In this document: positions 15,801-54,871 of the stretch, piece after piece | How the letters are laid out: every line of letters begins with the position of its first letter | Position numbering within the stretch: the first letter of the stretch is position 1 | Origin: Parapristionchus giblindavisi | Taxonomy: Eukaryota; Nematoda; Chromadorea; Rhabditida; Diplogasteridae | DNA length: 64,000 nt | Direction: 5' to 3' | Assembly (NCBI GenBank): GCA_943737045.1 | Contig: CALSFV010000666.1 | Span: 96,277-160,276 of the forward strand | Made by a program: the position numbers and the translations under genes | The notes under the pieces: generated by a model | The model's input: the letters and a program-made list of their open reading frames with translations, nothing else | What the model was told of the DNA's origin: nothing | Database searches by the model: none

Positions 15801-16149
15801 ACCTATCATGTCATATACCAAATGAAAGAGCGAAAAATTCTGAATAAGATAAACTATTTCAAAGTGGTCAGTACGGCCAATATGTAAATTTATCTTTCAG
15901 TACTCTCTGTTTCTGGTACAAAACAGTTCGTTACAAGTCAAATTGTCAATGATACTCAGCGAGTGATATACTATGTGAAAGAGGAAAAAATTCTGAATGA
16001 GACACACTTCAGGTCATGTCAATCTGTAATATTTTACTGCTGCTATAATGATCGAAGTACAAAAGTAGCTTTTACTCTGATATGATCAAGATAACTTGAG
16101 AAATGTGTAAATGAAAATGAAACCTATCGTGTCATATACCAAATGAAAG

Positions 16150-16170
16150 AGCGAAAAATTCTGAATGAGA
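16150..16170. repeat. Half-unit: 153-bp deletion between satellite subrepeats
   Basis: Here GAGCGAAAAATTCTGAAT from the first half of the unit is joined directly to GAGACACACTTCATG from the second half, leaving a 168-bp unit. The deletion removes exactly one subrepeat interval, as expected from slippage or recombination between the two related halves. Confidence 0.8.
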
Positions 16171-24696: not shown

Positions 24697-24799
24697 TTTT
24701 TTGTACCAGAAACAGAGAGTACTGAAAGATAAATTTACATATTGGCCGTACTGACCACTTTGAAATAGTTTATCTTATTCAGAATTTTTCGCTCTTTCA
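24697..24799 (-). repeat. Inverted satellite fragment
   Basis: A stretch of about 103 bp is the inverse of the satellite segment running from GAAAGAGCGAAAAATTC to TCTGGTACAAAA. It immediately follows the same segment in direct orientation, creating a hairpin-like inversion. Direct satellite resumes near 24804 (TCAATCTGTAAT). This is the only orientation change in the array and lies 200 bp before the LINE. Confidence 0.85.
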
Positions 24800-25057: not shown

Positions 25058-25121
25058 CTACGCGTGCTGTGATCCCTGTGCCGGGGAGCTTATGATAATT
25101 CAATCGGCACCCAAATAGGTT

Positions 25122-28981: not shown

Positions 28982-29129
28982 CAAGATATTTGCCCTATCC
29001 CCATAGACCTATGTCCTTTATTCAACCTCCACGTTTGTTTTGTTGTTGTGTGTTCATCATTCTTTTAAATTTATTTATCTATTATTATTTACCGTGTTTT
29101 CTTGTAAAACGCATAAATTTATTATTATT

Positions 29130-30048
29130 ATTTCAAAGTGGTCAGTACGGCCAATATGTAAATTTATCTTTCAGTACTCTCTGTTTCTGGTACAAAACAG
29201 TTCGTTACAAGTCAAATTGTCAATGATACTCAGCGAGTGATATACTATGTGAAAGAGGAAAAAATTCTGAATGAGACAAACTTCAGGTCATGTCAATCTG
29301 TAATATTTTACTGCTGCTATAATGATCGAAGTACAAAAGTAGCTTTTACTCTGATATGATCAAGATAACTTGAGAAATGTGAAAATGAAATTGAAACCTA
29401 TCGTGTCATATACCAAATGAAAGAGCGAAAAATTCTGAATAAGATAAACTATTTCAAAGTGGTCAGTACGGCCAATATGTAAATTTATCTTTCAGTACTC
29501 TCTGTTTCTGGTACAAAACAGTTCGTTACAAGTCAAATTGTCAATGATACTCAGCGAGTGATATACTATGTGAAAGAGGAAAAAATTCTGAATGAGACAC
29601 ACTTCAGGTCATGTCAATCTGTAATATTTTACTGCTGCTATAATGATCGAAGTACAAAAGTAGCTTTTACTCTGATATGATCAAGATAACTTGAGAAATG
29701 TGAAAATGAAATTGAAACCTATCGTGTCATATACCAAATGAAAGAGCGAAAAATTCTGAATGAGATAAACTATTTCAAAGTGGTCAGTACGGCCAATATG
29801 TAAATTTATCTTTCAGTACTCTCTGTTTCTGGTACAAAACAGTTCGTTACAAGTCAAATTGTCAATGATACTCAGCGAGTGATATACTATGTGAAAGAGG
29901 AAAAAATTCTGAATGAGACACACTTCAGGTCATGTCGATCTGTAATATTTTACTGCTGCTATAATGATCGAAGTAAAAAAGTAGCTTTACTCTGATATGA
30001 TCAAGATAACTTGAGAAATTTGAAAATGAAAATGAAACCTATCGTGTA
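29130..30048. repeat. 321-bp satellite array, middle block (about 2.9 units)
   Basis: Satellite of the A variant resumes right after the LINE tail (TTTCAAAGTGGTCAGTACGG) and ends in AACCTATCGTG at the edge of the DNA transposon. The last units carry the AATGAGATAAAC and GAAGTAAAAAAGTAGC variants seen also at 17.3, 19.2 and 23.7 kb. Confidence 0.93.
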
Positions 30049-30105
30049 TCCTGTATGTATCCTATCGTGTATCCTGTGTAACCTATCGTGTATGAAACCT
30101 ATCGT
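30049..30105. repeat. Short repeated filler at the transposon's left flank
   Basis: The satellite motif CCTATCGTG is repeated four times within about 65 bp, separated by short bits such as TATCCTGTATGTAT and TATGAAA. Such templated, stuttering insertions are typical of error-prone end joining at a break. Confidence 0.6.
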
Positions 30106-30136
30106 GCACACAGTCGAATGCATTTTGCAGCTAAGA
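30106..30136 (+). repeat. Left terminal inverted repeat of the transposon
   Basis: 31 bp, perfectly inverse to 42021-42051. A related second copy of its core (AATGCATTTTGCAGC) lies 55 bp further in. Confidence 0.9.
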
Positions 30137-30453
30137 GAAGGCAAAATGGTACCAAAAAGGTGAAAAAAATGCATTTTGCAGCCACAGCTACGAAAAAGCT
30201 TCAAAAAGTTAAGGCAGCTTAACTTTTTGATGCCTTTCCTTAACTTCTTGGACGGAAAGCTAAGAAAAGCCTTGAAAATGTTTCAAATCACGAGCATGAC
30301 CTAGCGTACAGCGTTGCGTTCGCGCTGCGTACATTGGATTCGAAATTGAATTAAATTTCATTTTTACTTATATTTTGCAGTAAAATGTTTAAATATGTTT
30401 CATTTTAATATCTTTTTCATTTACAGGCCGGTCTTGACCGTTTTGGTGGTTTA

Positions 30454-33400
30454 ATGGGGAGAAGTAGACGAATACGCCGTATTGACGTTACTCCACGGAA
30501 ACATGGTATATTTATTTACAGTCTATCATTTGTTGTCTATACCTTAACGTTCTGAAATTATTGAGCTATCCCGTTTCAGACGGAAATATTGATCCATCTC
30601 AAGCAAATCTCCGTTCAGAATGGGATAATGAACTGGCCGCCATCGAAGGTATATTCTCTAACGTTTAGCCTTTTCTTTGCGATTTGTTTAATTCATTTAC
30701 ATTTAGCCGAACTTGATTCTGATAATCTTGAATATAATGAAGAAGAAAGAAATTGGAATGGAGATTATGATGATTATGGAAGTGAGGAAGGGATGGAAGT
30801 AGAAGAAGAAATTGATGGTTAGTTTATTGTCATCTGTGACTCCTTCTTTCGCTCGTGCTCATCCGCTCTAGCAATGCTACGTGTCTCTGTCATCTTCTAT
30901 GCCTCTACCTGTCACTTATCCTCCATTTTCTCGCATTTTCGGTTGAATATACGTCACTGTCTACTGCCTTTTGTCATCTGTGACTCATTCTTTCGCGCGC
31001 GCTCAACCGCTCTAGCAATGCTACGTGTCTCTGTCATCTTCTATGCCTCTACCTGTCACTTATCCTCCATTTTCTCGCATTTTCGGTTGAATATACGTCA
31101 CTGTCTACTGCCTTTTGTCATCTGTGACTCATTCTTTCGCGCGCGCTCAACCGCTCTAGCAATGCTACGTGTCTCTGTCATCTTCTATGCCTCTACCTGT
31201 CACTTATCCTCCATTTTCTCGCATTTTCGGTTGAATATACGTCACTGTCTACTGCCTTTTGTCATCTGTGACTCATTCTTTCGCGCGCGCTCAACCGCTC
31301 TAGCAATGCTACGTGTCTCTGTCATCTTCTATGCCTCTACCTGTCACTTATCCTCCATTTTCTCGCATTTTCGGTTGAATATACGTCACTGTCTACTGCC
31401 TTTTGTCATCTGTGACTCATTCTTTCGCGCGCGCTCAACCGCTCTAGCAATGCTACGTGTCTCTGTCATCTTCTATGCCTCTACCTGTCACTTATCCTCC
31501 ATTTTCTCGCATTTTCGGTTGAATATACGTCACTGTCTACTGCCTTTTGTCATCTGTGACTCATTCTTTCGCGCGCGCTCATCCGCTCTAGCAATGCTAC
31601 GTGTCTCTGTCATCTTCTATGCCTCTACCTGTCACTTATCCTCCATTTTCTCGCATTTTCGGTTGAATATACGTCACTGTCTACTGCCTTTTGTCATCTG
31701 TGACTCATTCTTTCGCGCGCGCTCATCCGCTCTAGCAATGCTACGTGTCTCTGTCATCTTCTATGCCTCTACCTGTCACTTATCCTCCATTTTCTCGCAT
31801 TTTCGGTTGAATATACGTCACTGTCTACTGCCTTTTGTCATCTGTGACTCATTCTTTCGCGCGCGCTCATCCGCTCTAGCAATGCTACGTGTCTCTGTCA
31901 TCTTCTATGCCTCTACCTGTCACTTATCCTCCATTTTCTCGCATTTTCGGTTGAATATACGTCACTGTCTACTGCCTTTTGTCATCTGTGACTCATTCTT
32001 TCGCGCGCGCTCAACCGCTCTAGCAATGCTACGTGTCTCTGTCATCTTCTATGCCTCTACCTGTCACTTATCCTCCATTTTCTCGCATTTTCGGTTGAAT
32101 ATACGTCACTGTCTACTGCCTTTTGTCATCTGTGACTCATTCTTTCGCGCGCGCTCATCCGCTCTAGCAATGCTACGTGTCTCTGTCATCTTCTATGCCT
32201 CTACCTGTCACTTATCCTCCATTTTCTCGCATTTTCGGTTGAATATACGTCACTGTCTACTGCCTTTTGTCATCTGTGACTCATTCTTTCGCGCGCGCTC
32301 ATCCGCTCTAGCAATGCTACGTGTCTCTGTCATCTTCTATGCCTCTACCTGTCACTTATCCTCCATTTTCTCGCATTTTCGGTTGAATATACGTCACTGT
32401 CTACTGCCTTTTGTCATCTGTGACTCATTCTTTCGCGCGCGCTCAACCGCTCTAGCAATGCTACGTGTCTCTGTCATCTTCTATGCCTCTACCTGTCACT
32501 TATCCTCCATTTTCTCGCATTTTCGGTTGAATATACGTCACTGTCTACTGCCTTTTGTCATCTGTGACTCATTCTTTCGCGCGCGCTCAACCGCTCTAGC
32601 AATGCTACGTGTCTCTGTCATCTTCTATGCCTCTACCTGTCACTTATCCTCCATTTTCTCGCATTTTCGGTTGAATATACGTCACTGTCTACTGCCTTTT
32701 GTCATCTGTGACTCATTCTTTCGCGCGCGCTCAACCGCTCTAGCAATGCTACGTGTCTCTGTCATCTTCTATGCCTCTACCTGTCACTTATCCTCCATTT
32801 TCTCGCATTTTCGGTTGAATATACGTCACTGTCTACTCCTTTTGTCATCTGTGACTCATTCTTTCGCGCGCGCTCATCCGCTCTAGCAATGCTACGTGTC
32901 TCTGTCATCTTCTATGCCTCTACCTGTCACTTATCCTCCATTTTCTCGCATTTTCGGTTGAATATACGTCACTGTCTACTGCCTTTTGTCATCTGTGACT
33001 CATTCTTTCGCGCGCGCTCATCCGCTCTAGCAATGCTACGTGTCTCTGTCATCTTCTATGCCTCTACCTGTCACTTATCCTCCATTTTCTCGCATTTTCG
33101 GTTGAATATACGTCACTGTCTACTGCCTTTTGTCATCTGTGACTCATTCTTTCGCGCGCGCTTTCTAGCACTGTCTATGCTTTTGTATCTGTGACTCATT
33201 CTTTCGCGCGCGCTCATCCGCTCTAGCAATGCTACGTGTCTCTGTCATCTTCTATGCCTCTACCTGTCACTTATCCTCCATTTTCTCGCATTTTCGGTTG
33301 AATATACGTCACTGTCTACTGCCTTTTGTCATCTGTGACTCATTCTTTCGCGCGCGCTCAACCGCTCTAGCAATGCTACGTGTCTCTGTCATCTTCTATG

Positions 33401-36400
33401 CCTCTACCTGTCACTTATCCTCCATTTTCTCGCATTTTCGGTTGAATATACGTCACTGTCTACTGCCTTTTGTCATCTGTGACTCATTCTTTCGCGCGCG
33501 CTCATCCGCTCTAGCAATGCTACGTGTCTCTGTCATCTTCTATGCCTCTACCTGTCACTTATCCTCCATTTTCTCGCATTTTCGGTTGAATATACGTCAC
33601 TGTCTACTGCCTTTTGTCATCTGTGACTCATTCTTTCGCGCGCGCTCATCCGCTCTAGCAATGCTACGTGTCTCTGTCATCTTCTATGCCTCTACCTGTC
33701 ACTTATCCTCCATTTTCTCGCATTTTCGGTTGAATATACGTCACTGTCTACTGCCTTTTGTCATCTGTGACTCATTCTTTCGCGCGCGCTCAACCGCTCT
33801 AGCAATGCTACGTCATTTTCTATTAATACCAAATATTTTTTAAATTTTCAGACCAGTCCACTGGAGATGATTCTCATTCCGGATTATCAAATATACCGGC
33901 AATTGTTCTGATGCATCTATCGTTTCTGTTGAGATACTCTATTCCTGAAGAAGGTTTTTTTTTAAAAATAATTTTAATGTTTTAACTTTGCTTACGTTAG
34001 GAATACGTTTATACTGTAATATTAATGTCAAACCTGAAGACCGGAGGATTTTATGGACGGTCCTTAAAGGAAATAAAACTGATATACTTGAGACCCACGT
34101 TTGTGTTCAGTGTGGCGAGGATAGGATGTCAGCGACGAAGTAATTTCACAATTTGTGATTAATCTTATTATGTTAATTTTGAGATGCTGTTGTAACTCTG
34201 CATATGCCTTGTTGTCATTTTCTCCTCTTTCATCATTACTTACTGAATTTTACACTAAATTCAAAACCAGTATCAGTAGAATACAATCAAATATTCGTAA
34301 TGGTCAGGAAGTACTATCAGCTATAAACGGTAGTGAATTCCGTACTTCGCTACTAAAGGTTTTACCGACACTTTATATTTTTTTCAAAATTTATTTGCAG
34401 TATGATGCATCTATCAATCCATTACATTTCGCTCTTCACACTGACGGTGTAGAGTTGAGTGGTAGGAGGAGGTAAAATCTTGGGGATTAATGCAGCTTTT
34501 ATCGCTACAAATCCGACTTTTGAGTGGATCACAATGACCAGCCCAGGGGAGTCTAAAACATACGTGGGCGGGCATTGCAGCTGGAAATGAAAATCGGGGG
34601 GTCGGACGCAAAAAATTTAGCATTTATACGTCATTTTGAGTGATTTTTCGGAAAATCGGGGGGGGGGGGTCGGGTGCCAAAAATCGGGGGTGTATTGCCG
34701 CTAGCGGCAGTGGTGCCCACGAATGGTCTAAAAACGATGAATGAGAGATTTGAAGTGGGATAAGTCTAAGATTTTTTGGTGTTTTGCTTTTAAGATTTTT
34801 ACTTCCTAAGGACAGAAAAATCTAATCGAAAATAAAAAAGAAATCATAACTGCACGGAAGTAGCATTTCAAAGATAGTACATCTCGCTGTTTCCTACCTT
34901 CCCTAATCGCCTCGTGGCGTAGTCGGGAAGAATCTTGTGTGTGAAAATTTTTGTTTTCTCGGGAACCGTGGTTCGATTTCTTCTAGTGTTTTGCTTTTTG
35001 TTCATTTTGTTTTATTGAATTATGTTTGAACGCAGTGTCTGGGATGAGAGGCGTTCATTTTTTATGTTCTTTGTTGAGGACACTCCGTCCCTAAAACACC
35101 TCCCTGTAAGGTTTTCTTATTATGACCCCAGGGACACATATCTACAAGGATTCGATGTGAATCGTATGTCAGGGAGTTTCTCTGAGTGTAATCAAGGGAA
35201 CTGTAGTGACGTATTATGGACTTGCTATCTTACAGCACGAAGTGTTGGACGTTCTCGTTGTCATGTCTAGACTTACCTCTAATTGATCGTTCATCTCCAA
35301 TGAATATTGTGTTATCGTCTATTTTTATGTCTACTGTGGAACCTTCAACTGTGATAATGGATAAGATAATACACTGGTATTAAAAATTTTTGTATATGTT
35401 AAGCCAATAGTTTTGTAAACACAGGGTACTGAACATTTTTGATATGATTGCCAGTTTCGGTGTCTTCACGCCGATATTAGTGGATTTCATTGGCGATGAT
35501 CCAGTCAGTTACATATCATAAACATACTAAATAGTGATTATCCCTGACATATAATTACTTATAAGTCAATTTATTTAAATCCCGTTGTGTTACGACTGTG
35601 CCATTCGAACCGCCATGTGATTATGATACGACATCGTTGATCAAAAATCTTAATTGTTCTTAATCTTAATTGCATAGCGCGTTGTGAAAATCTATCGTGA
35701 AAATCGCGAAAAAAAAGTAAAGCCCATATTCCGATTTCCGCTACTCTACCAACGAGCCTTGTGATGTAGAGGATAAGGCGAATCTGGGCGTTATTTTTTT
35801 CGCGATTTTCACGATAGGTTTTCACAACGTGCATAAGCAATTAAGATTTTTGATCAACGATGTCGTATCAGAATCACATGGCGGTTCGAATGGCACAGTC
35901 GTAACACAACGGGATTTTCATATCATTCCATTGTTAGGCAAAGCGTAAGATTATGGGTTTTGTTGGGCGGACAAGTAAATGTGGATGTATGTATTGTGTA
36001 TCAGAACAAATATTATGTAAAGATTCATCTGGATACAGTTAAGTAATATCATTCGAAATTTCGTTAAACCAAAGATCTCTACAGGTCGATCTCTATTCAG
36101 AGATAATGATCTATCGATACAAGATTGCTTGAATCGTGTAAATGGTTTCAAACAAACATCTCTCGCGGGATTGCATATACCTATTTATAAAACAAGTCCT
36201 GATTGGTTGCACCTTTCATCGGAAGGTGTCAATAAAATCTGGTTGACAAGTAAACAACATCTCTCGTTAACCTTCCGCATTTTGATTTTTTAGATGTGCA
36301 CCCCCAATTAATGAGTAGCCAAGCTAAAGGCAAGCCAGGCTGGCGCAGTAGTAGTTGGAAGGATTTGGAACATGTGAACAAGAGAGTTAGTAATTCAATA

Positions 36401-38043
36401 TTTTAAAAAATATGTTTAAAAATTTAAAAAAAAACCAGGTGAAAACTCCTTCATTCATCCCACCCCCCCATATCACCTACAGAAAGTGTTCGCCCATCCC
36501 CGCGATGTGGTGGGTATTTTAGCCTTTTGTCATTCTACTAAAGCACATTCAGTTTTTCTACACAACATGTCTCACTGCGATTTTGGAAGGAGTAACGACT
36601 GAGACAATCCCGGGAGTGGTACTGAAAAAGTACCACATTCGAAAATCAAAATTTGTTGAATTATTTAGATTGGACTTGCACTCGCTTTTAATTCTCTATC
36701 GATGCAGTCTCTTCGATTCAATTCCATGAAGCCGGCGATGAAACAAATCTGTTTCCATTTGGGAACAATTATTAGACAGTTTGATCCTTCCGTGTTTCAA
36801 TCGATAAAATATCATGTAATGAATGAAACGTTCATTAGTATGAACATGTGTGGAATCATTCCAGGTTTATGTGTATCATTTACCCGAATTGATAGATCGT
36901 TTTGGATGTTTGAAAGATTTTGACTGCTCATTATTCGAGTCGCTATTCTCGTTCGTTAAGAATGTAGTGCCGGAACGAATAACTAATGGCACGTCTAGAG
37001 CAATGATGTATAGGTAAAGATGCGAAATATATCACGCCAGTCATGAGAGAATCGAGAGTGTGTGAAACGAGATTTTGACTGTCTATCCTTATTTTTCCTC
37101 CATTCCGATCTTTAGCTGCATTCTCTAGTGAGTGAAGTGATATAGTTTTCAAATCGATTACTATTTTTTTTAAAAATTTTCCATTTCTTCATAGTAATCA
37201 ATCATAAACAACTCAGATTGAATTCATGGAGGTCTGTATGTGCTGAACTGAAGAGACGAATTGTCACTGGAGAAATAGGTATCATAAACAAATTATTAAG
37301 TTATTATTTTTTTTAAATTTAGACGATGATTACTACGGAAAATCCCTAAAGATGATCATCAATGCTAAATCTTCAATTTATCAACCATTTCATACTCATA
37401 CCCAGGATTCGGAGAATGGATTGATTAAGAAAGGAGAACAGGAATTTTCAAGAATACAATATTACGGTAGTTTCTTATCGACTGTCCGTGATGAACCTGG
37501 AACACATTGTAATTCCGCTGTATCTTATGAGACTGAAAAGGGTGTATGTTTTGGTCGTATTCATCATATTTGTAAAACCGTTAATGCTAATGAGTATTCC
37601 TTGATAATTGAAAATTTCGTATGTTCAGAATCATGTTTTGATAAGGTTAAACTAGCTTTGAGCACCCTCAACACGCCTTATGTTATTAATATGTTAGAAA
37701 TTGTGAGATTGATTGAAAGAACCAAAATGATAGTGTCTGGACATTTCTCTGGCAACTTTTCTCGTATTCCGCTATTGTCCGTTATTGGAAATGTAATTAC
37801 AGTAGAAGGAAATGTTGTACATTTAATGATGCAGCCATACGGCCCTCACATACGTAATCATAATTGCTTTGTAGTTGTTTTGTAAGTGGAATTGTTTTGG
37901 TTTGCTATAGCATATCTCAAATATATGTCGTGATAAATGATGATAAATATCTTCCCTATCAATTTGTTGTGCCAAAAGACTGGTTGTTTTCCGATTATTA
38001 TCTGCTAATAATAATAATAATAAACTTAATGGATCGATTTTAG
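30454..38043 (+). CDS. Tnp2/CMC-type transposase, 19 exons, 827 codons
   Basis: Exons: 30454-30505, 30580-30648, 30707-30817, 33852-33953, 34001-34139, 34184-34358, 34401-34471, 35236-35376, 35425-35503, 35938-36037, 36085-36249, 36294-36385, 36439-36513, 36553-36654, 36708-36815, 36865-37013, 37217-37278, 37323-37881, 37911-38043; all introns are GT-AG. The joined frame has no stop. Landmarks: acidic N-terminus; CVQC (146-149) and CCC (159-161), perhaps zinc-binding; TDG (D231); DDPA (D311, D312); CMYC (330-333); DWLH (386-389); HLPELIDRFG (532-541); FES (E552); and a C-terminal FSRIQYYGS...FGRIHHI block. CxxC followed by LH is a CMC signature; D231, D311 or D312, and E552 are candidate catalytic residues. 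It should cut and join the terminal repeats. The last intron (29 nt) is unusually short; if it is not spliced, the protein ends at 37885 with 784 residues. Exon 1 follows an acceptor-like ACAG, so a 5' leader exon or trans-splicing is possible. Confidence 0.82.
30829..33813. repeat. 144-bp minisatellite in transposase intron 3 (about 20.7 copies)
   Basis: Nearly identical 144-bp units (GTCATCTGTGACTCATTC... to CTCTAGCAATGCTACGTG). The commonest difference is A/T in CTCAACCGC versus CTCATCCGC. One unit near 32836 has a 1-bp deletion and one near 33163-33190 is truncated. Because 144 is divisible by 3 and the unit has no stop in one frame, a 670-residue frame (30874-32886) appears, but the array lies between a good donor (30818) and acceptor (33851), with matching reading phase on both sides. 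It is intronic. Confidence 0.95.
34472..35235. other. Long intron 7 of the transposase, with inserted sequence
   Basis: 764 bp, against a typical 40-60 nt. It holds two related G-rich blocks (AAAATCGGGGGGTCGGACGC near 34590 and a longer version near 34650) and the tRNA-like segment below. It looks like the result of small insertions. Confidence 0.6.
34908..34985 (+). ncRNA. tRNA-like (SINE head-like) segment in intron 7
   Basis: The A box TGGCGTAGTCGG (34915-34926) matches the Pol III consensus, and the B box GGTTCGATTTC (34970-34980) follows 55 nt later. That spacing fits a tRNA with a long variable arm or small intron, or a tRNA-derived SINE. The stems are not convincing, so a working tRNA is unlikely. 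Confidence 0.4.
35577..35917. mobile_element. Palindromic MITE in transposase intron 9
   Basis: 341 bp. Arms of about 120-140 bp start AAATCCCGTTGTGTTACGAC and end with the inverse, around an 80-bp centre. Arm identity is high. It lies wholly inside intron 9 (35504-35937), so the coding frame is spared. It is an element nested within a larger element. No coding capacity; superfamily not clear. Confidence 0.8.
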
Positions 38044-38055
38044 GGCTTTTTAATG
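38024..38055 (+). promoter_or_regulatory. Tight gene junction with acceptor-like site
   Basis: The transposase stop TAG (38041-38043) is part of GATCGATTTTAG, a good 3' splice site, and the next gene's ATG is at 38053. Either the second gene's RNA is made by cis- or trans-splicing at this site, or the two frames share one transcript. Confidence 0.35.
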
Positions 38056-41000
38056 TACCCACAACTCTCAATTGGAAATGACAAGGTGATTATTTGCCTA
38101 TTACAAGTCATGACCTGTACATAACATTTTTTTTTATTTTCAGGGTCGGAAACGACGCCAGAACGCGCTCCCGTCGAGATACGCTCAAGATTACATAGAC
38201 TGTCCAGATAGCCAGGTGAATTTTTTGTAAATGATGATGTAAAAAGTTTTCATAACTAATAAAAAAGTGTCAAATTGAAAAATTCAGAGAAAATTGACCG
38301 AGTCATGTGTTTGTGATATTAAGATTATGATTATGATTGTGATAATTATCTTTTCTTACGGTGCACATTCAGGCATCTGCTCCACGCATAGGGATAGCTC
38401 AGCGACGACTGGAAGTACTGGAACGTGAGAGAATGCGTATACTGATGGGCAATCAATACATGAATGACAGAAATAGTCAACACAATACAGTAATGCTCAA
38501 TACAAATATTCGTCAGACTTCTATTGGGGATGAGGTCAGTAGCAGACAAATTTTGTTTTGTAATTAAATATATCATTTATATTTAGCATATAGAGGATTT
38601 CGAACCTGTTGATCGCACGCTAAACTTCCCACCTAACAACGAATACGATGATGAGGAGGCCCGTATTGCATCTGCAGATATGGGACGAACGCGCCCAACT
38701 GTAAGTTAAAGATGAGGAACCTCGAAAAAATGAAAGATTCCTACCCCGGTTAGCATGAGCCCCTCATGCATATACTGTAAGTAAAAAGTTTGTCGATATT
38801 CAGTTTGCGATCTGCTCTCAGCCTTTGCCCTCTGATTAGGACCCTTCCCATCCCCTTTCATCTTTCCCCGAACTATTGAACATCTTTAATTCATGATTAT
38901 ACCGATCAATACGCAGAATCATTATAACATAAATAGTATGAGGTGACTAACATGACTTTTGCTACCATCCCGTCTTCGCAGTTTATTCACGTGGGACACC
39001 ACCTTTAAGCATTATATTTCGTTTGATTATCTCTCCTGTTTCGAGAAAAATGCATTATTTCAGATTCGAAATACAAACAATGAACTACTAGCTGTCAATA
39101 TAGCTAATTCACTTTTTCTCGGCAGAGACCGTGAAGATTTTCCACAATCGATGGTGATTAAATCAACATTTTTTTCAATAATAAGTCGTCTTTTGTAGAA
39201 AGAATTATCACAAGCTACCTCTGGAGAGTATCGTCCCTTGGATCTTTCGACATTCACAAATATTGCTGAAGAATCTACGTGTGAATCGTGCAAAAAGATG
39301 TCCACAGCTCTAGTTGGAGTGGTAGCATTCGTACGTTACTATTTCAAAATATTAATTTCTTGAAATGTTGTTTTCATAAAAATTTTCAGTCCTGCATTAC
39401 TGTAATCGAGGATTACTGTTATTAATTCTACTTTCAGGTAAATCGTGAATTTACCAGACTTAGTAAAGTGAGGAAAGAAATGAATGATGATAATAAAAAA
39501 ACCGGAGATGTGGTGAGCCAGTGCATGCATTATTGACTACTTTAAGTTAATAAGCCTTAATTTTAAAGTTGAATACTACGAATGTTACCTTCTCTAAGAT
39601 ATTTCTTCGATGTTTGGATAGAGAACAATTTTCATGTAGTATTTTTCTTCCGAGTGAAGCCAGGGAGAAAGAGGTTCATTTTACAGAACTTTACATGTTT
39701 AATTATTCATTTTATTTTAGATCGATTTGATATCAATTTTACTGTCGAGCGAGGGTATCGAGTTCGAGGGTACTCTTGACTACACTTTATCGAAGTTGAA
39801 TCATATTTTATTCTCTGGAGTAAGTGTCCAATTTATTCAGCAATTTTCATACCAACAGTTAAGGAATTTATCGTTGGGTTGTGACTTTTCAAATGTATTA
39901 CTAATCCACGGATGATTATTAATTGTCCTTTTTATTTAAACATCATTTAATCATTCAGGCTACTGGTAAGGATATCGATCAGTTCTCTGCCCATAGGAGC
40001 CAACGATCTTCGTTACGACCCATTCCGGATTCATATTTCGAAAAAACTGTTGGTTGGTAGCTTTGCATCTTAAAATCTCAAAACGACAAGAACTATGTAT
40101 TCGTATATGGAGATATAATCATTTTATTTATTTCTAGACATACTGTTCCCATGGAGCTAGAGCATATAGCTTTTGATGCTTCGTAGCATATGCCTTACGC
40201 GCTTACGGCTTAACGTATTACATTTAGCTGCGTATGCGTCTGTCTAAATTTTAGAGTGTATCTCTGAAATCCTGATAGGATATAAAACTACTGTAAGAGT
40301 TATGGCGGGTTACGGTAGCCGAATATTGATATTGATCGCTGACCGTACCCCCATCAAGATTTTCCAATCGAGACACGGCACAATCAAAAGTTTACATCGA
40401 CGCATATGTATGCAGAAACCTGTAGTACTGTAACGAATGTAATACAAATGTAACGCTATGAACATGTTAGGCAAACATAACTATATAACGTAACTTATGA
40501 TATGTAACGCCGCAATACGTAGCAGAGTCGTGTATTGATTGATGATTGATCGATTGATTCTTGTTCTTTACAGATCTGGTATGGAGAGGATGCTCATTAG
40601 ACAGTTTATTCGTCAGTGAAGAACAAAGAGTCAAAGCACGAGGGCAAATGATGTCCACTTCAAGGAAACAAATCCAGGGACTCACGTAGGTTTTCCATTT
40701 TATTTATTTTATTTAAATACAACGGAAAAAAGTAACGATTAATTACAATGACCATTTGAAACGAAAATAAAATGAAATATTTGTGAAAATTGACGTAAAG
40801 CTGCACATGCCGATTGTTACCGTTTTTCACGTACTTGTTAATGTATTTTCTATCTGGAAAATTAGTATGATGAAGCATACTGTCTAATCTTACTGTAAAA
40901 TGTGCTTTTATCATCTAATCATGGATGTATGTGTCATTACACGATCCCCCAGAGCGAATTTGCATTGTTTGGATCGAGGCATAGATTAGGCTGCAAAACT

Positions 41001-41246
41001 GGTATACTGTAGAAAATTCTACCGTATACCAATTCCACTAGGAATTATTTGATTTTTTTCATCAAAGGTCAAATAGGTAGTCCCAGTGATGCACAAATAG
41101 CCCATTATCTAAAAAATAACATATTTATATATATATATTTTTTTATCAGAGAGAGAAGCCGGTTGAAGAAGACGCCTCCAAGCAATGCCACCACTACTCC
41201 ACGGACCTCTAATTCATCTTCTACTTCACCATCGACTTCCTCTTAA
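38053..41246 (+). CDS. Second transposon gene, 11 exons, 359 residues, unknown function
   Basis: Exons: 38053-38085, 38144-38215, 38373-38534, 38587-38700, 39064-39153, 39199-39330, 39438-39512, 39721-39819, 39959-40052, 40574-40685, 41150-41246; all introns are GT-AG and the first eight exons end in phase 0. The frame is open to a TAA. The predicted protein has a basic N-terminal GRKRRQ, a charged helix (RRLEVLERERMRILMG), an acidic stretch (NEYDDEEA), a CESCKK motif, a central FEGTLDYTLSKLNHILFSG block and a Ser/Thr/Pro-rich tail (TTTPRTSNSSS). I recognise no family. By position it corresponds to the accessory product (TnpA/TNP1-like) that plant CACTA elements make beside their transposase, which is inference only. 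Exon 1 is 11 codons and is the least certain; the gene might also be spliced onto the transposase. Intron 7 could contain a further small exon. Confidence 0.65.
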
Positions 41247-42020
41247 GATGATTGATTGTTGCTCATCATTGATTGTTGCTCCTTCTGCTATGATTACTTA
41301 ATATTGATTATACTTTAGTCTTCATTCTTTCTTGGTTCTGATCATTCTATGCCCCATGTTTCATCATCATCCAAATATTTCCCTGTGAATGTATCTGTAT
41401 ATTTCCTTTCCCCTACAATTCTTTCGTCCATTTCTATCGTTCCATTGACCCCTGACCTCCCTCCCTCTCTTTCACCTCTCCCTTATAAGGGCGAGCATTC
41501 GTTCGTCTAAGTTGCTTTCAATAGGATTATTAACATATTAAGATATTTTATTAAGATATTTTACTAGGAATTATTTATTAAGATATTTTACTAGGGAATA
41601 TTTTATTGATCTCGTTAAGTTTTCTCTTGTACAATGTGCCGTGTGCTACAATTGATTCTTGTACAATATGTGTTCTGTGCTAGAATTAATCATTCATTCC
41701 ATTATCACGTATTATTAATACTCATTATATGATAAATCAATATTCTGTACGTAAATAGCATTAGCTAATGAGCATTTCATAAAAAGTAACCAATAAAAGC
41801 TATAGAAAAGGCATAGAATAGCTAAGAAAAGCCATAAAAATGGTCAGGAAAAGTGACGAAAAATGCATTTTATTGCTTCAAATTGCTACAGAAATGCTAC
41901 TAAAAAGGTAAAAAGCCACGAAAAAGCTAAGAAAAGCCAAGAAAAATGCATGCAAAATGCCTGCGCAGGCATTTTTTCCGACATCTGAAATGCATTCGAG
42001 TTAGCTGCAAAATGCATTTT
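41247..42020. other. 3' region of the transposon
   Basis: Non-coding. It contains a duplicated block of about 48 bp (TTAAGATATTTTACTAGG twice, about 41538-41600), an AATAAA at 41792-41797 that could serve polyadenylation of the second gene, and the subterminal AAGAAAAGCC/TGCATTTT repeats. Confidence 0.6.
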
Positions 42021-42051
42021 TCTTAGCTGCAAAATGCATTCGACTGTGTGC
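42021..42051 (-). repeat. Right terminal inverted repeat of the transposon
   Basis: 31 bp, exact inverse of 30106-30136, ending GACTGTGTGC; satellite resumes 5 bp later at ATGATCGAAG. Confidence 0.9.
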
Positions 42052-42055
42052 CTGA

Positions 42056-45000
42056 GATGATCGAAGTACAAAAGTAGCTTTTACTCTGATATGATCAAGA
42101 TAACTTGAGAAATTTGAAAATGAAAATGAAACCTATCGTGTCATATACCAAATGAAAGAGCGAAAAATTCTGAATAAGATAAACTATTTCAAAGTGGTCA
42201 GTACGGCCAATATGTAAATTTATCTTTCAGTACTCTCTGTTTCTGGTACAAAACAGTTCGTTACAAGTCAAATTGTCAATGATACTCAGCGAGTGATATA
42301 CTATGTGAAAGAGGAAAAAATTCTGAATGAGACAAACTTCAGGTCATGTCAATCTGTAATATTTTACTGCTGCTATAATGATCGAAGTACAAAAGTAGCT
42401 TTTACTCTGATATGATCAAGATAACTTGAGAAATGTGAAAATGAAATTGAAACCTATCGTGTCATATACCAAATGAAAGAGCGAAAAATTCTGAATAAGA
42501 TAAACTATTTCAAAGTGGTCAGTACGGCCAATATGTAAATTTATCTTTCAGTACTCTCTGTTTCTGGTACAAAACAGTTCGTTACAAGTCAAATTGTCAA
42601 TGATACTCGGCGAGTGATATACTATGTGAAAGAGGAAAAAATTCTGAATGAGACACACTTCAGGTCATGTCAATCTGTAATATTTTACTGCTGCTATAAT
42701 GATCGAAGTACAAAAGTAGCTTTTACTCTGATATGATCAAGATAACTTGAGAAATGTGAAAATGAAATTGAAACCTATCGTGTCATATACCAAATGAAAG
42801 AGCGAAAAATTCTGAATAAGATAAACTATTTCAAAGTGGTCAGTACGGCCAATATGTAAATTTATCTTTCAGTACTCTCTGTTTCTGGTACAAAACAGTT
42901 CGTTACAAGTCAAATTGTCAATGATACTCGGCGAGTGATATACTATGTGAAAGAGGAAAAAATTCTGAATGAGACACACTTCAGGTCATGTCAATCTGTA
43001 ATATTTTACTGCTGCTATAATGATCGAAGTACAAAAGTAGCTTTTACTCTGATATGATCAAGATAACTTGAGAAATGTGAAAATGAAATTGAAACCTATC
43101 GTGTCATATACCAAATGAAAGAGCGAAAAATTCTGAATAAGATAAACTATTTCAAAGTGGTCAGTACGGCCAATATGTAAATTTATCTTTCAGTACTCTC
43201 TGTTTCTGGTACAAAACAGTTCGTTACAAGTCAAATTGTCAATGATACTCGGCGAGTGATATACTATGTGAAAGAGGAAAAAATTCTGAATGAGACACAC
43301 TTCAGGTCATGTCAATCTGTAATATTTTACTGCTGCTATAATGATCGAAGTACAAAAGTAGCTTTTACTCTGATATGATCAAGATAACTTGAGAAATTTG
43401 AAAATGAAAATGAAACCTATCGTGTCATATACCAAATGAAAGAGCGAAAAATTCTGAATAAGATAAACTATTTCAAAGTGGTCAGTACGGCCAATATGTA
43501 AATTTATCTTTCAGTACTCTCTGTTTCTGGTATAAAACAGTTCGTTACAAGTCAAATTGTCAATGACACTCAGCAAGTGATATACTAGGTGAAAGAGGAA
43601 AAAATTCTGAATGAGACACACTTCAGGTCATGTCAATCTGTAATATTTTACTGCTGCTATAATGATCGAAGTACAAAAGTAGCTTTTACTCTGATATGAT
43701 CAAGATAACTTGAGAAATGTGAAAATGAAAATGAAACCTATCGTGTCATATACCAAATGAAAGAGCGAAAAATTCTGAATAAGATAAACTATTTCAATGT
43801 GGTCAGTACGGCCAATATGCAAATTTATCTTTCGGTACTCTCTGTTTTTGGTACAAAACAGTTCGTTACAAATCAAATTGTCAATGATACTCAGCAAGTG
43901 ATATACTAGGTGAAAGAGGAAAAAATTCTGAATGAGACACACTTCAGGTCATGTCGATCTGTAATATTTTACTGCTGCTATAATGATCGAAGTACAAAAG
44001 TAGCTTTTACTCTGATATGATCAAGATAACTTGAGAAATGTGAAAATGAAAATGAAACCTATCGTGTCATATACCAAATGAAAGAGCGAAAAATTCTGAA
44101 TAAGATAAACTATTTCAATGTGGTCAGTACGGCCAATATGTAAATTTATCTTTCGGTACTCTCTGTTTTTGGTACAAAACAGTTCGTTACAAGTCAAATT
44201 GTCAATGACACTCAGCAAGTGATATACTAGGTGAAAGAGGAAAAAATTCTGAATGAGACACACTTCAGGTCATGTCGATCTGTAATATTTTACTGCTGCT
44301 ATAATGATCGAAGTACAAAAGTAGCTTTTACTCTGATATGATCAAGATAACTTGAGAAATGTGAAAATGAAAATGAAACCTATCGTGTCATATACCAAAT
44401 GAAAGAGCGAAAAATTCTGAATAAGATAAACTATTTCAATGTGGTCAGTACGGCCAATATGCAAATTTATCTTTCGGTACTCTCTGTTTTTGGTACAAAA
44501 CAGTTCGTTACAAATCAAATTGTCAATGATACTCAGCAAGTGATATACTAGGTGAAAGAGGAAAAAATTCTGAATGAGACACACTTCAGGTCATGTCGAT
44601 CTGTAATATTTTACTGCTGCTATAATGATCGAAGTACAAAAGTAGCTTTTACTCTGATATGATCAAGATAACTTGAGAAATGTGAAAATGAAAATGAAAC
44701 CTATCGTGTCATATACCAAATGAAAGAGCGAAAAATTCTGAATAAGATAAACTATTTCAATGTGGTCAGTACGGCCAATATGTAAATTTATCTTTCGGTA
44801 CTCTCTGTTTTTGGTACAAAACAGTTCGTTACAAGTCAAATTGTCAATGACACTCAGCAAGTGATATACTAGGTGAAAGAGGAAAAAATTCTGAATGAGA
44901 CACACTTCAGGTCATGTCGATCTGTAATATTTTACTGCTGCTATAATGATCGAAGTACAAAAGTAGCTTTTACTCTGATATGATCAAGATAACTTGAGAA

Positions 45001-48000
45001 ATGTGAAAATGAAAATGAAACCTATCGTGTCATATACCAAATGAAAGAGCGAAAAATTCTGAATAAGATAAACTATTTCAATGTGGTCAGTACGGCCAAT
45101 ATGCAAATTTATCTTTCGGTACTCTCTGTTTTTGGTACAAAACAGTTCGTTACAAATCAAATTGTCAATGATACTCAGCAAGTGATATACTAGGTGAAAG
45201 AGGAAAAAATTCTGAATGAGACACACTTCAGGTCATGTCGATCTGTAATATTTTACTGCTGCTATAATGATCGAAGTACAAAAGTAGCTTTTACTCTGAT
45301 ATGATCAAGATAACTTGAGAAATGTGAAAATGAAAATGAAACCTATCGTGTCATATACCAAATGAAAGAGCGAAAAATTCTGAATAAGATAAACTATTTC
45401 AATGTGGTCAGTACGGCCAATATGTAAATTTATCTTTCGGTACTCTCTGTTTTTGGTACAAAACAGTTCGTTACAAGTCAAATTGTCAATGACACTCAGC
45501 AAGTGATATACTAGGTGAAAGAGGAAAAAATTCTGAATGAGACACACTTCAGGTCATGTCGATCTGTAATATTTTACTGCTGCTATAATGATCGAAGTAC
45601 AAAAGTAGCTTTTACTCTGATATGATCAAGATAACTTGAGAAATGTGAAAATGAAAATGAAACCTATCGTGTCATATACCAAATGAAAGAGCGAAAAATT
45701 CTGAATAAGATAAACTATTTCAATGTGGTCAGTACGGCCAATATGCAAATTTATCTTTCGGTACTCTCTGTTTTTGGTACAAAACAGTTCGTTACAAATC
45801 AAATTGTCAATGATACTCAGCAAGTGATATACTAGGTGAAAGAGGAAAAAATTCTGAATGAGACACACTTCAGGTCATGTCGATCTGTAATATTTTACTG
45901 CTGCTATAATGATCGAAGTACAAAAGTAGCTTTTACTCTGATATGATCAAGATAACTTGAGAAATGTGAAAATGAAAATGAAACCTATCGTGTCATATAC
46001 CAAATGAAAGAGCGAAAAATTCTGAATAAGATAAACTATTTCAATGTGGTCAGTACGGCCAATATGTAAATTTATCTTTCGGTACTCTCTGTTTTTGGTA
46101 CAAAACAGTTCGTTACAAGTCAAATTGTCAATGACACTCAGCAAGTGATATACTAGGTGAAAGAGGAAAAAATTCTGAATGAGACACACTTCAGGTCATG
46201 TCGATCTGTAATATTTTACTGCTGCTATAATGATCGAAGTACAAAAGTAGCTTTTACTCTGATATGATCAAGATAACTTGAGAAATGTGAAAATGAAAAT
46301 GAAACCTATCGTGTCATATACCAAATGAAAGAGCGAAAAATTCTGAATAAGATAAACTATTTCAATGTGGTCAGTACGGCCAATATGCAAATTTATCTTT
46401 CGGTACTCTCTGTTTTTGGTACAAAACAGTTCGTTACAAATCAAATTGTCAATGATACTCAGCAAGTGATATACTAGGTGAAAGAGGAAAAAATTCTGAA
46501 TGAGACGCACTTCAGGTCATGTCGATCTGTAATATTTTACTGCTGCTATAATGATCGAAGTACAAAAGTAGCTTTTACTCTGATATGATCAAGATAACTT
46601 GAGAAATGTGAAAATGAAAATGAAACCTATCGTGTCATATACCAAATGAAAGAGCGAAAAATTCTGAATAAGATAAACTATTTCAATGTGGTCAGTACGG
46701 CCAATATGCAAATTTATCTTTCGGTACTCTCTGTTTTTGGTACAAAACAGTTCGTTACAAATCAAATTGTCAATGATACTCAGCAAGTGATATACTAGGT
46801 GAAAGAGGAAAAAATTCTGAATGAGACACACTTCAGGTCATGTCGATCTGTAATATTTTACTGCTGCTATAATGATCGAAGTACAAAAGTAGCTTTTACT
46901 CTGATATGATCAAGATAACTTGAGAAATGTGAAAATGAAAATGAAACCTATCGTGTCATATACCAAATGAAAGAGCGAAAAATTCTGAATAAGATAAACT
47001 ATTTCAATGTGGTCAGTACGGCCAATATGTAAATTTATCTTTCGGTACTCTCTGTTTTTGGTACAAAACAGTTCGTTACAAGTCAAATTGTCAATGACAC
47101 TCAGCAAGTGATATACTAGGTGAAAGAGGAAAAAATTCTGAATGAGACACACTTCAGGTCATGTCGATCTGTAATATTTTACTGCTGCTATAATGATCGA
47201 AGTACAAAAGTAGCTTTTACTCTGATATGATCAAGATAACTTGAGAAATGTGAAAATGAAAATGAAACCTATCGTGTCATATACCAAATGAAAGAGCGAA
47301 AAATTCTGAATAAGATAAACTATTTCAATGTGGTCAGTACGGCCAATATGCAAATTTATCTTTCGGTACTCTCTGTTTTTGGTACAAAACAGTTCGTTAC
47401 AAATCAAATTGTCAATGATACTCAGCAAGTGATATACTAGGTGAAAGAGGAAAAAATTCTGAATGAGACGCACTTCAGGTCATGTCGATCTGTAATATTT
47501 TACTGCTGCTATAATGATCGAAGTACAAAAGTAGCTTTTACTCTGATATGATCAAGATAACTTGAGAAATGTGAAAATGAAAATGAAACCTATCGTGTCA
47601 TATACCAAATGAAAGAGCGAAAAATTCTGAATAAGATAAACTATTTCAATGTGGTCAGTACGGCCAATATGCAAATTTATCTTTCGGTACTCTCTGTTTT
47701 TGGTACAAAACAGTTCGTTACAAATCAAATTGTCAATGATACTCAGCAAGTGATATACTAGGTGAAAGAGGAAAAAATTCTGAATGAGACACACTTCAGG
47801 TCATGTCGATCTGTAATATTTTACTGCTGCTATAATGATCGAAGTACAAAAGTAGCTTTTACTCTGATATGATCAAGATAACTTGAGAAATGTGAAAATG
47901 AAAATGAAACCTATCGTGTCATATACCAAATGAAAGAGCGAAAAATTCTGAATAAGATAAACTATTTCAATGTGGTCAGTACGGCCAATATGTAAATTTA

Positions 48001-51000
48001 TCTTTCGGTACTCTCTGTTTTTGGTACAAAACAGTTCGTTACAAGTCAAATTGTCAATGACACTCAGCAAGTGATATACTAGGTGAAAGAGGAAAAAATT
48101 CTGAATGAGACACACTTCAGGTCATGTCGATCTGTAATATTTTACTGCTGCTATAATGATCGAAGTACAAAAGTAGCTTTTACTCTGATATGATCAAGAT
48201 AACTTGAGAAATGTGAAAATGAAAATGAAACCTATCGTGTCATATACCAAATGAAAGAGCGAAAAATTCTGAATAAGATAAACTATTTCAATGTGGTCAG
48301 TACGGCCAATATGCAAATTTATCTTTCGGTACTCTCTGTTTTTGGTACAAAACAGTTCGTTACAAATCAAATTGTCAATGATACTCAGCAAGTGATATAC
48401 TAGGTGAAAGAGGAAAAAATTCTGAATGAGACACACTTCAGGTCATGTCGATCTGTAATATTTTACTGCTGCTATAATGATCGAAGTACAAAAGTAGCTT
48501 TTACTCTGATATGATCAAGATAACTTGAGAAATGTGAAAATGAAAATGAAACCTATCGTGTCATATACCAAATGAAAGAGCGAAAAATTCTGAATAAGAT
48601 AAACTATTTCAATGTGGTCAGTACGGCCAATATGCAAATTTATCTTTCGGTACTCTCTGTTTTTGGTACAAAACAGTTCGTTACAAATCAAATTGTCAAT
48701 GATACTCAGCAAGTGATATACTAGGTGAAAGAGGAAAAAATTCTGAATGAGACACACTTCAGGTCATGTCGATCTGTAATATTTTACTGCTGCTATAATG
48801 ATCGAAGTACAAAAGTAGCTTTTACTCTGATATGATCAAGATAACTTGAGAAATGTGAAAATGAAAATGAAACCTATCGTGTCATATACCAAATGAAAGA
48901 GCGAAAAATTCTGAATAAGATAAACTATTTCAATGTGGTCAGTACGGCCAATATGTAAATTTATCTTTCGGTACTCTCTGTTTTTGGTACAAAACAGTTC
49001 GTTACAAGTCAAATTGTCAATGACACTCAGCAAGTGATATACTAGGTGAAAGAGGAAAAAATTCTGAATGAGACACACTTCAGGTCATGTCGATCTGTAA
49101 TATTTTACTGCTGCTATAATGATCGAAGTACAAAAGTAGCTTTTACTCTGATATGATCAAGATAACTTGAGAAATGTGAAAATGAAAATGAAACCTATCG
49201 TGTCATATACCAAATGAAAGAGCGAAAAATTCTGAATAAGATAAACTATTTCAATGTGGTCAGTACGGCCAATATGCAAATTTATCTTTCGGTACTCTCT
49301 GTTTTTGGTACAAAACAGTTCGTTACAAATCAAATTGTCAATGATACTCAGCAAGTGATATACTAGGTGAAAGAGGAAAAAATTCTGAATGAGACACACT
49401 TCAGGTCATGTCGATCTGTAATATTTTACTGCTGCTATAATGATCGAAGTACAAAAGTAGCTTTTACTCTGATATGATCAAGATAACTTGAGAAATGTGA
49501 AAATGAAAATGAAACCTATCGTGTCATATACCAAATGAAAGAGCGAAAAATTCTGAATAAGATAAACTATTTCAATGTGGTCAGTACGGCCAATATGCAA
49601 ATTTATCTTTCGGTACTCTCTGTTTTTGGTACAAAACAGTTCGTTACAAATCAAATTGTCAATGATACTCAGCAAGTGATATACTAGGTGAAAGAGGAAA
49701 AAATTCTGAATGAGACACACTTCAGGTCATGTCGATCTGTAATATTTTACTGCTGCTATAATGATCGAAGTACAAAAGTAGCTTTTACTCTGATATGATC
49801 AAGATAACTTGAGAAATGTGAAAATGAAAATGAAACCTATCGTGTCATATACCAAATGAAAGAGCGAAAAATTCTGAATAAGATAAACTATTTCAATGTG
49901 GTCAGTACGGCCAATATGTAAATTTATCTTTCGGTACTCTCTGTTTTTGGTACAAAACAGTTCGTTACAAGTCAAATTGTCAATGACACTCAGCAAGTGA
50001 TATACTAGGTGAAAGAGGAAAAAATTCTGAATGAGACACACTTCAGGTCATGTCGATCTGTAATATTTTACTGCTGCTATAATGATCGAAGTACAAAAGT
50101 AGCTTTTACTCTGATATGATCAAGATAACTTGAGAAATGTGAAAATGAAAATGAAACCTATCGTGTCATATACCAAATGAAAGAGCGAAAAATTCTGAAT
50201 AAGATAAACTATTTCAATGTGGTCAGTACGGCCAATATGCAAATTTATCTTTCGGTACTCTCTGTTTTTGGTACAAAACAGTTCGTTACAAATCAAATTG
50301 TCAATGATACTCAGCAAGTGATATACTAGGTGAAAGAGGAAAAAATTCTGAATGAGACACACTTCAGGTCATGTCGATCTGTAATATTTTACTGCTGCTA
50401 TAATGATCGAAGTACAAAAGTAGCTTTTACTCTGATATGATCAAGATAACTTGAGAAATGTGAAAATGAAAATGAAACCTATCGTGTCATATACCAAATG
50501 AAAGAGCGAAAAATTCTGAATAAGATAAACTATTTCAATGTGGTCAGTACGGCCAATATGTAAATTTATCTTTCGGTACTCTCTGTTTTTGGTACAAAAC
50601 AGTTCGTTACAAGTCAAATTGTCAATGACACTCAGCAAGTGATATACTAGGTGAAAGAGGAAAAAATTCTGAATGAGACACACTTCAGGTCATGTCGATC
50701 TGTAATATTTTACTGCTGCTATAATGATCGAAGTACAAAAGTAGCTTTTACTCTGATATGATCAAGATAACTTGAGAAATGTGAAAATGAAAATGAAACC
50801 TATCGTGTCATATACCAAATGAAAGAGCGAAAAATTCTGAATAAGATAAACTATTTCAATGTGGTCAGTACGGCCAATATGCAAATTTATCTTTCGGTAC
50901 TCTCTGTTTTTGGTACAAAACAGTTCGTTACAAATCAAATTGTCAATGATACTCAGCAAGTGATATACTAGGTGAAAGAGGAAAAAATTCTGAATGAGAC

Positions 51001-54000: not shown

Positions 54001-54871
54001 AAATGAAACCTATCGTGTCATATACCAAATGAAAGAGCGAAAAATTCTGAATAAGATAAACTATTTCAATGTGGTCAGTACGGCCAATATGCAAATTTAT
54101 CTTTCGGTACTCTCTGTTTTTGGTATAAAACAGTTCGTTACAAGTCAAATTGTCAATGATACTCAGCGAGTGATATACTATGTGAAAGAGGAAAAAATTC
54201 TGAATGAGACACACTTCAGGTCATGTCAATCTGTAATATTTTACTGCTGCTATAATGATCGAAGTACAAAAGTAGCTTTTACTCTGATATGATCAAGATA
54301 ACTTGAGAAATTTGAAAATGAAAATGAAACCTATCGTGTCATATACCAAATGAAAGAGCGAAAAATTCTGAATAAGATAAACTATTTCAAAGTGGTCAGT
54401 ACGGCCAATATGTAAATTTATCTTTCAGTACTCTCTGTTTCTGGTACAAAACAGTTCGTTACAAGTCAAATTGTCAATGATACTCAGCGAGTGATATACT
54501 ATGTGAAAGAGGAAAAAATTCTGAATGAGACACACTTCAGGTCATGTCAATCTGTAATATTTTACTGCTGCTATAATGATCGAAGTACAAAAGTAGCTTT
54601 TACTCTGATATGATCAAGATAACTTGAGAAATGTGAAAATGAAATTGAAACCTATCGTGTCATATACCAAATAAAAGAGCGAAAAATTCTGAATAAGATA
54701 AACTATTTCAAAGTGGTCAGTGCGGCCAATATGTAAATTTATCTTTCAGTACTCTCTGTTTTTGGTACAAAACAGTTCGTTACAAGTCAAATTGGCAATG
54801 ATACTCAGCGAGTGATATACTATGTGAAAGAGGAAAAAAATCTGAATGAGACACACTTCAGGTCATGTCGA
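42056..54871. repeat. 321-bp satellite array, right block (about 40 units)
   Basis: It starts with A-type units. From 43.7 kb onward B-type units dominate, with two sub-variants: one with ATATGCAAATTT and TACAAATCAAATTG, the other with ATATGTAAATTT, TACAAGTCAAATTG and AATGACACTC. They alternate as 642-bp dimers (43.7-46.3 kb) and also form 963-bp trimers. The private change GAGACGCAC marks units at 46.27 and 47.23 kb, exactly three units apart. A-type traits return after 53 kb. The last unit stops inside TTCAGGTCATGTCGA, where the GC-rich array begins. It shows strong local homogenisation. Confidence 0.95.

What the first reader, a model, noticed from the sequence alone, without database searches (positions are those of the whole stretch)
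30106..42051. A complete two-gene CACTA/CMC-like transposon hidden in satellite DNA
Seen: perfect 31-bp inverted ends with CAC-type termini, subterminal repeats, and a frame that stays open through 18 GT-AG junctions to give 827 codons with TDG, DDPA, CxxC, LH and FE motifs in the order known for the CACTA-Mirage-Chapaev group. No single exon except exon 18 is long enough to be noticed, so ORF-based annotation would miss it. Inference: an autonomous and possibly active element, with both genes unbroken.
Basis: partly seen in the sequence, partly recalled or inferred. Interest (0 to 1): 0.88.

Follow-up and report, generated by a model that had tools for sequence, protein, structure and literature searches.

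The report
Tip-less Mirage transposon in worm satellite
A genome that is likely a roundworm's holds one detected gene-bearing copy of a Mirage-type jumping-gene family; this copy lacks the outer five bases of one end and has a one-base frame shift relative to the nearest relative found, so it likely can no longer move itself, although shortened copies of it sit at other sites.

Summary
The 31-bp inverted ends are perfect, and a multi-exon transposase gene plus a second gene lie between them. The transposase matches Pfam DUF1258 (E=1.6e-30), the Mirage group of CMC transposases, rather than CACTA. A relative in the same 251-Mb genome (contig C138) has the same 18-exon plan at 41% protein identity. 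Other copies show that the real inverted repeat is five bases longer (tip CTCAG): 118 of 127 exactly matching ends carry it. The window copy has it on the right but not on the left, where a 59-bp patchwork of satellite words abuts. Target duplications are 2 bp (33 of 35 pairs examined). Exon 13 is 71 nt against 72 nt in the relative: a frameshift, avoidable only by a splice that drops a conserved block. So "complete, both genes unbroken" fails. The family has moved: four internally deleted derivatives of this element, differing at 4-20 of about 2,380 sites in their 3' part, sit elsewhere with both tips and 2-bp duplications. It is a new member of a known kind, probably stranded. A sequencing or assembly error could explain either defect; no reads were available to test that.

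The parts
30106..30136 (+). Left (5') inverted repeat, truncated: lacks the outer CTCAG present in other copies
30047..30105 (.). 59-bp filler at the left junction, built largely from words of the neighbouring satellite
   Evidence: 58% covered by 9-mers of the 150-bp flanks (both strands), shuffled mean 2.4%, 0 of 2000 shuffles reach it
30106..30506 (.). 5' outer region with repeats of the terminal word AAAATGCA
30454..37885 (+). Gene 1: Mirage-group transposase, 18 exons (768 codons with the short exon 13)
30827..33813 (.). 144-bp tandem array filling intron 3; copy number varies among derivatives
34401..34471 (+). Exon 7, carries TDG (first catalytic Asp, by motif)
35425..35503 (+). Exon 9, ends in the DDP of DDPA (second catalytic Asp, by motif)
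35572..35922 (.). Nested 351-bp palindromic insert in intron 9 (85-nt arms, 96% complementary)
36439..36509 (+). Exon 13 at the borders homologous to the relative's: 71 nt against 72 nt, so frameshifted within a C run; 36483-36509 is the in-frame short variant
36865..37013 (+). Exon 16, with the second H of H(4)H and the FE motif (catalytic Glu, by motif)
37323..37885 (+). Exon 18, the long last exon
38053..41246 (+). Gene 2: 12 exons, 394 codons, no Pfam match found; conserved in the C138 relative (33% identity)
41651..42051 (.). 3' outer region with repeats of the terminal word
42021..42056 (-). Right (3') inverted repeat, full 36 bp including the tip CTGAG
42057..54871 (.). Flanking 321-bp satellite array; a unit starts ATGATCG directly after the right tip

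Best explanation
This is the one gene-carrying copy found of a Mirage-group (CMC) cut-and-paste transposon family; it lacks the outer 5 bp of its left end and carries a one-base frameshift in transposase exon 13 relative to the one relative found, so it likely can no longer move itself. Shown: family ends CTCAGG, 2-bp target duplications, an 18-exon DUF1258 transposase model and a second conserved gene, and internally deleted derivatives at other sites. Inferred: the transposase would bind the repeated outer words, cut at CTCAG with a DDE active site, and join the ends across a 2-bp stagger. Inferred: the left end of this copy was probably broken (perhaps by its own aborted excision inside the satellite) and healed by end joining that copied neighbouring satellite words, which removed the tip and part of the satellite.
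For: DUF1258 match E=1.6e-30 for the window protein and 6.3e-27 for the C138 relative; PMC3985635 equates DUF1258 with the Mirage group (passages seen). Same 18 exons and phases in the two elements, 41% identity. D231, D311/D312, C330-x2-C333, H511-x4-H516 and E536 identical in the two. Tip CTCAG on 118 of 127 exactly matching ends and on both ends of the C138 relative. 2-bp duplications at 33 of 35 pairs; 3-bp match at 0 of 35. Left junction lacks CTCAG and carries filler. Exon 13 is 71 nt against 72 nt. Deletion derivatives L044, L047 and L048 (20 of about 2380 sites differ from the window, 8 among themselves) and L049 (4 of 2390) in the 3' part, all with both tips and 2-bp duplications. Two places in the genome match exon 18 and exon 16: the window and C138.
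Against: The short exon 13 (36483-36509) keeps the frame open, so a protein without the conserved block could still be made. Satellite junctions and homopolymers are classic places for assembly and base errors, and no reads were available. Only one relative defines exon 13. The genome search scores only its best candidates, so 'one copy' is a lower bound. Eight other ends of the 127 also lack an exact CTCAG and were not all inspected. The 5' parts of the derivatives are less alike (98.5-99.9% by BLAST, L049 the lowest, tandem units included) than the 3' figures suggest.
Confidence: 0.78

Rival explanations
1. One reading: a complete, autonomous, possibly active CACTA element with both genes unbroken.
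For: Perfect 31-bp ends, open spliced frames with the short exon 13, nearly identical derivatives. 2-bp duplications are reported for CACTA-type elements too (PMC6004678, passage).
Against: Left tip missing while 118 of 127 exactly matching family ends have it; termini CTCAGG, not CAC; DUF1258 match and no Transposase_21 match; exon 13 frameshift.
Confidence: 0.06
2. The copy is intact in the animal and both defects are assembly or base-calling errors (satellite junction; a C run one base short).
For: Both defects sit in error-prone contexts: a satellite boundary and a seven-C run. L049 differs from this element at only 4 of 2390 sites of the 3' part, so a mobile source existed recently (dating inferred).
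Against: The filler at the left junction has the form of end joining with templated inserts rather than a simple misjoin. Two separate errors would be needed. The read technology is unknown.
Confidence: 0.16
3. A stranded helper (a special case of the best explanation): this copy cannot move but still makes transposase, through the short exon 13, that mobilises the non-autonomous copies.
For: Only gene-bearing copy of the family detected; frames stay open with the short exon; both elements have a CTACAG at that place.
Against: The short exon removes a block conserved with the relative; no transcript data. The other gene-bearing element (C138) has different ends, so it is not shown to serve this family either.
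Confidence: 0.15

Closest known systems
MIRAGE1 of Caenorhabditis elegans (Mirage group, CMC)
   Same: Nematode DNA transposon with two open reading frames (PMC5395297, passages seen); Mirage transposases are the DUF1258 family (PMC3985635, passages seen)
   Different: I could not compare sequences directly (no MIRAGE1 DNA or protein among the tools' results); here the transposase gene has 18 exons, the ends are CTCAGG, and this copy is damaged
C138 element in the same genome (C138:12121-21797)
   Same: Same two-gene order, same 18-exon gene 1, CTCAGG tips, 2-bp duplication (TA)
   Different: 41% and 33% protein identity; different inverted-repeat sequence beyond CTCAGG; both tips present and both modelled frames open; its 40-bp end occurs 47 times in the genome with up to 3 mismatches
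CACTA/EnSpm
   Same: CMC-type DDE transposase motifs and repeated words near the ends
   Different: EnSpm has 5'-CAC..GTG-3' termini and typically 3-bp duplications (PMC12730594, passage), though 2-bp cases are reported (PMC6004678, passage); here CTCAGG, 2 bp, DUF1258
Chapaev
   Same: CMC relative
   Different: Chapaev transposases correspond to DUF1280 (PMC3985635, passage); 4-bp duplications (recalled). No DUF1280 match and no 4-bp duplications were seen here

Membership tests
[quoted passage not shown]
   D231, D311/312, C330/C333, H511/H516, E536 identical in the two elements; definition from PMC12730594
CMC clade | 5'-CA..TG-3' termini in most cases, 2-5 bp duplications | tested here: inconclusive
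   Duplications of 2 bp fit; termini are CT..AG, not CA..TG. The source says 'in most cases'
Mirage group | DUF1258 (PF06869) transposase | tested here: met
   E=1.6e-30, 106.9 bits against a cut-off of 33.1
Mirage group | Two open reading frames, as in MIRAGE1 | tested here: met
   Two genes on one strand, both conserved in the relative; MIRAGE1 description. Homology of gene 2 to the second MIRAGE1 frame not tested
Mirage group | 2-bp target duplication (value for Mirage recalled, not from a call) | tested here: met
   33 of 35 pairs
Mirage group | Terminal sequence shared with MIRAGE1 | not testable with these tools
   No MIRAGE1 DNA available
CACTA/EnSpm | 5'-CAC..GTG-3' termini | tested here: not met
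   CTCAGG termini
CACTA/EnSpm | 3-bp duplication (2 bp also reported for some) | tested here: inconclusive
   2 bp at 33 of 35, 3-bp match at 0 of 35; 2-bp CACTA-type elements in PMC6004678
CACTA/EnSpm | Transposase_21 (PF02992) match | tested here: not met
   Only DUF1258 at E<=5 for the window protein; for C138 DUF1258 and a chance-level Paf1 at E<=10
Complete autonomous element | Both tips intact | tested here: not met
   Left CTCAG absent
Complete autonomous element | Transposase frame intact at homologous exon borders | tested here: not met
   Exon 13 71 nt against 72 nt; an in-frame short variant exists

The most novel reading that the evidence does not exclude
The copy is a locked helper: the last gene-bearing member of its family, pinned in satellite DNA by loss of its own left tip, yet still feeding transposase through an alternatively spliced exon 13 to more than a hundred family ends elsewhere. 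This would be a natural split transposon system and a first step towards domestication. Its two genes, about 160 bp apart on one strand, might be expressed as a spliced-leader operon.
Probability: 0.12. Interest if true: 0.6.

Novelty: new member of a known kind. Interest (0 to 1): 0.33.

Why it matters
It gives a nematode Mirage family its anatomy: tips, 2-bp duplications, an exon-by-exon gene model supported by a second element, and a trail of deletion derivatives. It also shows how a copy can look complete from its inverted ends alone and still be missing the outermost bases, which only comparison with other copies reveals. The junction looks like end-joining repair with templated inserts at a transposon end, the mode reported for transposon breaks in the C. 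elegans germ line (PMC4490562).

Tried and rejected
CACTA label: rejected on the ends and the Pfam match; the 2-bp duplication is weaker evidence, since PMC6004678 reports 2-bp CACTA-type elements. Termini at the 31-bp repeat: rejected, 5 bp too short. Homologue search in the large protein set for gene 1: 7192 candidates for the single protein (none at E<=0.001) and 7321 for the two-row alignment (none at E<=0.01); gene 2 was not searched there. Solved structures, gene 1 only: best E=0.13, taken as chance. NCBIfam, gene 1 only: nothing. Rfam SL1 model: nothing, and it rang in none of the 14 control genomes, so uninformative; the SL1 22-mer then gave 711 hits with up to 2 mismatches against 0 for the control (the 100 listed are all exact). 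The 23-kb C231 'copy' is a large inverted duplication with two left-type ends and no CTCAG tip.

Full report
What was checked. The window comes from a 251-Mb assembly of 703 contigs.

Ends. 30106-30136 and 42021-42051 are perfect 31-bp inverted repeats. In the genome the 31-mer has 14 exact hits and 169 with up to 3 mismatches (90 forward, 79 reverse; control 0). In 29 of the first 30 loci fetched, the end is preceded by CTCAG or followed by CTGAG; the exception is the window's own left end. So the real repeat is 36 bp. A degenerate version of the end has 127 exact hits without the tip and 118 with it; the nine without an exact tip include the window's left end, and the others were not all inspected. 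The window's right end has the tip (42052-42056). Two further checks agree: the C138 relative has perfect ends starting CTCAGG on both sides, flanked by TA/TA, and the four deletion derivatives have both tips.

Target duplications. I examined 35 paired ends: 15 from longer loci and 20 from 23-base stretches, chosen from the capped listings where two ends faced each other at short range; not every pair was taken. Ten belong to the C138 family, 25 to the window family. The two bases outside the tips match in 33; three bases match in 0; four match in one, a run of TA. The two that fail are L067 and L042. L043a and L043b lie close together in opposite orientation and may not be independent; of four tandem C239 copies one was counted. 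EnSpm/CACTA typically makes 3-bp duplications (PMC12730594, passage), but PMC6004678 (passage) reports CACTA-type elements with CAC termini and 2-bp duplications, so the length alone does not exclude CACTA; the termini and the transposase do. The 2-bp value for Mirage is recalled.

Left junction. The flanking satellite (321-bp unit) runs in register to CCTATCGTG, unit position about 85. Then come 59 bp of patchwork, then the element. After the right tip the satellite resumes at unit position 1, ATGATCG. 58% of the filler is covered by 9-mers found within 150 bp on either strand, against 2.4% in letter shuffles, 0 of 2000 reaching it; with 7-mers 13 of 2000 and with 12-mers 2 of 2000 reach the observed value. 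The filler repeats one satellite word itself, which raises the coverage. PMC4490562 (abstract and passages seen) reports that error-prone repair of transposon breaks in the C. elegans germ line is mostly by polymerase theta end joining, with templated inserts in 24% of deletions. My inference is that a break at this end was healed in that manner, with loss of the tip and about 240 bp (plus perhaps whole units) of satellite.

Genes. Exons were placed by hand with GT-AG signals on the window and on C138, guided by exon-by-exon similarity. Both gene-1 models have 18 exons with the same phase at every border. Lengths, window/C138: 52/52, 69/63, 111/189, 102/75, 139/136, 175/178, 71/74, 141/141, 79/79, 100/100, 165/165, 92/98, 27 or 71/72, 63/63, 147/147, 149/149, 62/59, 563/536. 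Because each element guided the model of the other, the agreement is not fully independent. Identity is 41%. Gene 2 has 12 exons (394 codons) in the window and 13 (399) in C138, 33% identity. No Pfam match was found for the 359-codon version of window gene 2 or for C138 gene 2; the exon at 39569-39673 was added later. The stop of gene 1 and the predicted acceptor of gene 2 are about 160 bp apart on one strand.

The break. At the homologous borders exon 13 is 71 nt in the window and 72 nt in C138. One frame of the window gives the start of the conserved block and another its end, with the change in a run of C. A downstream acceptor (36483) keeps the frame but removes that block; the relative has the same CTACAG there, inside coding sequence. 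I recall that other CMC transposases have a conserved motif at this point; this was not tested here. I report the break and did not repair it.

Family and relatives. Two places in the genome match exon 18 (100% and 38%) and exon 16 (100% and 52%): the window and C138; these searches score only the best candidates. Pfam gives DUF1258 for both transposases. PMC3985635 (passages seen) states that DUF1258 is the Mirage group and is relatively close to Transposase_21; PMC5395297 (passages seen, abstract in part) states that MIRAGE1 of C. elegans is autonomous with two open reading frames. The copies with these ends include four internally deleted derivatives of the window element. In the 3' part, L044, L047 and L048 share one deletion junction, differ from the window at 20 of about 2380 sites, and differ from each other at 8; L049 has another junction with filler and differs at 4 of 2390; L048 and L049 also carry inserts of about 0.2 kb. 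Their 5' parts are 98.5-99.9% identical to the window by BLAST. Other copies read have ends only about 81-96% like the window's in the matched pieces and otherwise no match to it.

Conclusion. A Mirage-group element, not CACTA; real, with a two-gene spliced model, from a family that moved recently (inferred from the low divergence); but this copy has lost one tip and, by comparison, one reading frame, so it is likely immobile. Confidence is limited by the lack of reads and transcripts.

Noticed in passing
25119-28981: Non-LTR retrotransposon with two overlapping frames (353 and 948 aa); the second has endonuclease and reverse transcriptase domains. It lies between satellite arrays.
   Followed up: partly
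12841-24699, 29129-30047, 42057-54871: 321-bp satellite arrays, separated by the retrotransposon and by the Mirage element.
   Followed up: partly
54872-64000: 185-bp tandem array with alternating purine-rich and pyrimidine-rich blocks that leaves long frames open on both strands.
   Followed up: no
30827-33813: 144-bp tandem array in intron 3 of the transposase gene, open in one frame for 687 codons; the relative's intron there is 65 bp, and copy number varies among deletion derivatives.
   Followed up: partly
35572-35922: 351-bp palindromic insert with 85-nt arms inside intron 9; the relative's intron there is 44 bp.
   Followed up: no
C138:12121-21797 (L035-L037): A second Mirage-type element with both tips, a TA duplication and both modelled gene frames open; its 40-bp end occurs 47 times in the genome with up to 3 mismatches.
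   Followed up: yes
C231:588098-611417 (L038-L040): 23-kb inverted duplication carrying two left-type ends that lack CTCAG (TTACG instead).
   Followed up: partly
L041: Copy with a nested retroelement that has a long gag-pol-like frame (recognised by eye).
   Followed up: no
C239:513663-525044: Four copies of a 0.7-kb non-autonomous element in 3560-bp tandem units.
   Followed up: no
C145:26449-82876: SL1 leader repeated about every 1167 bp over more than 55 kb, as far as the capped listing goes; probably a leader gene array.
   Followed up: no
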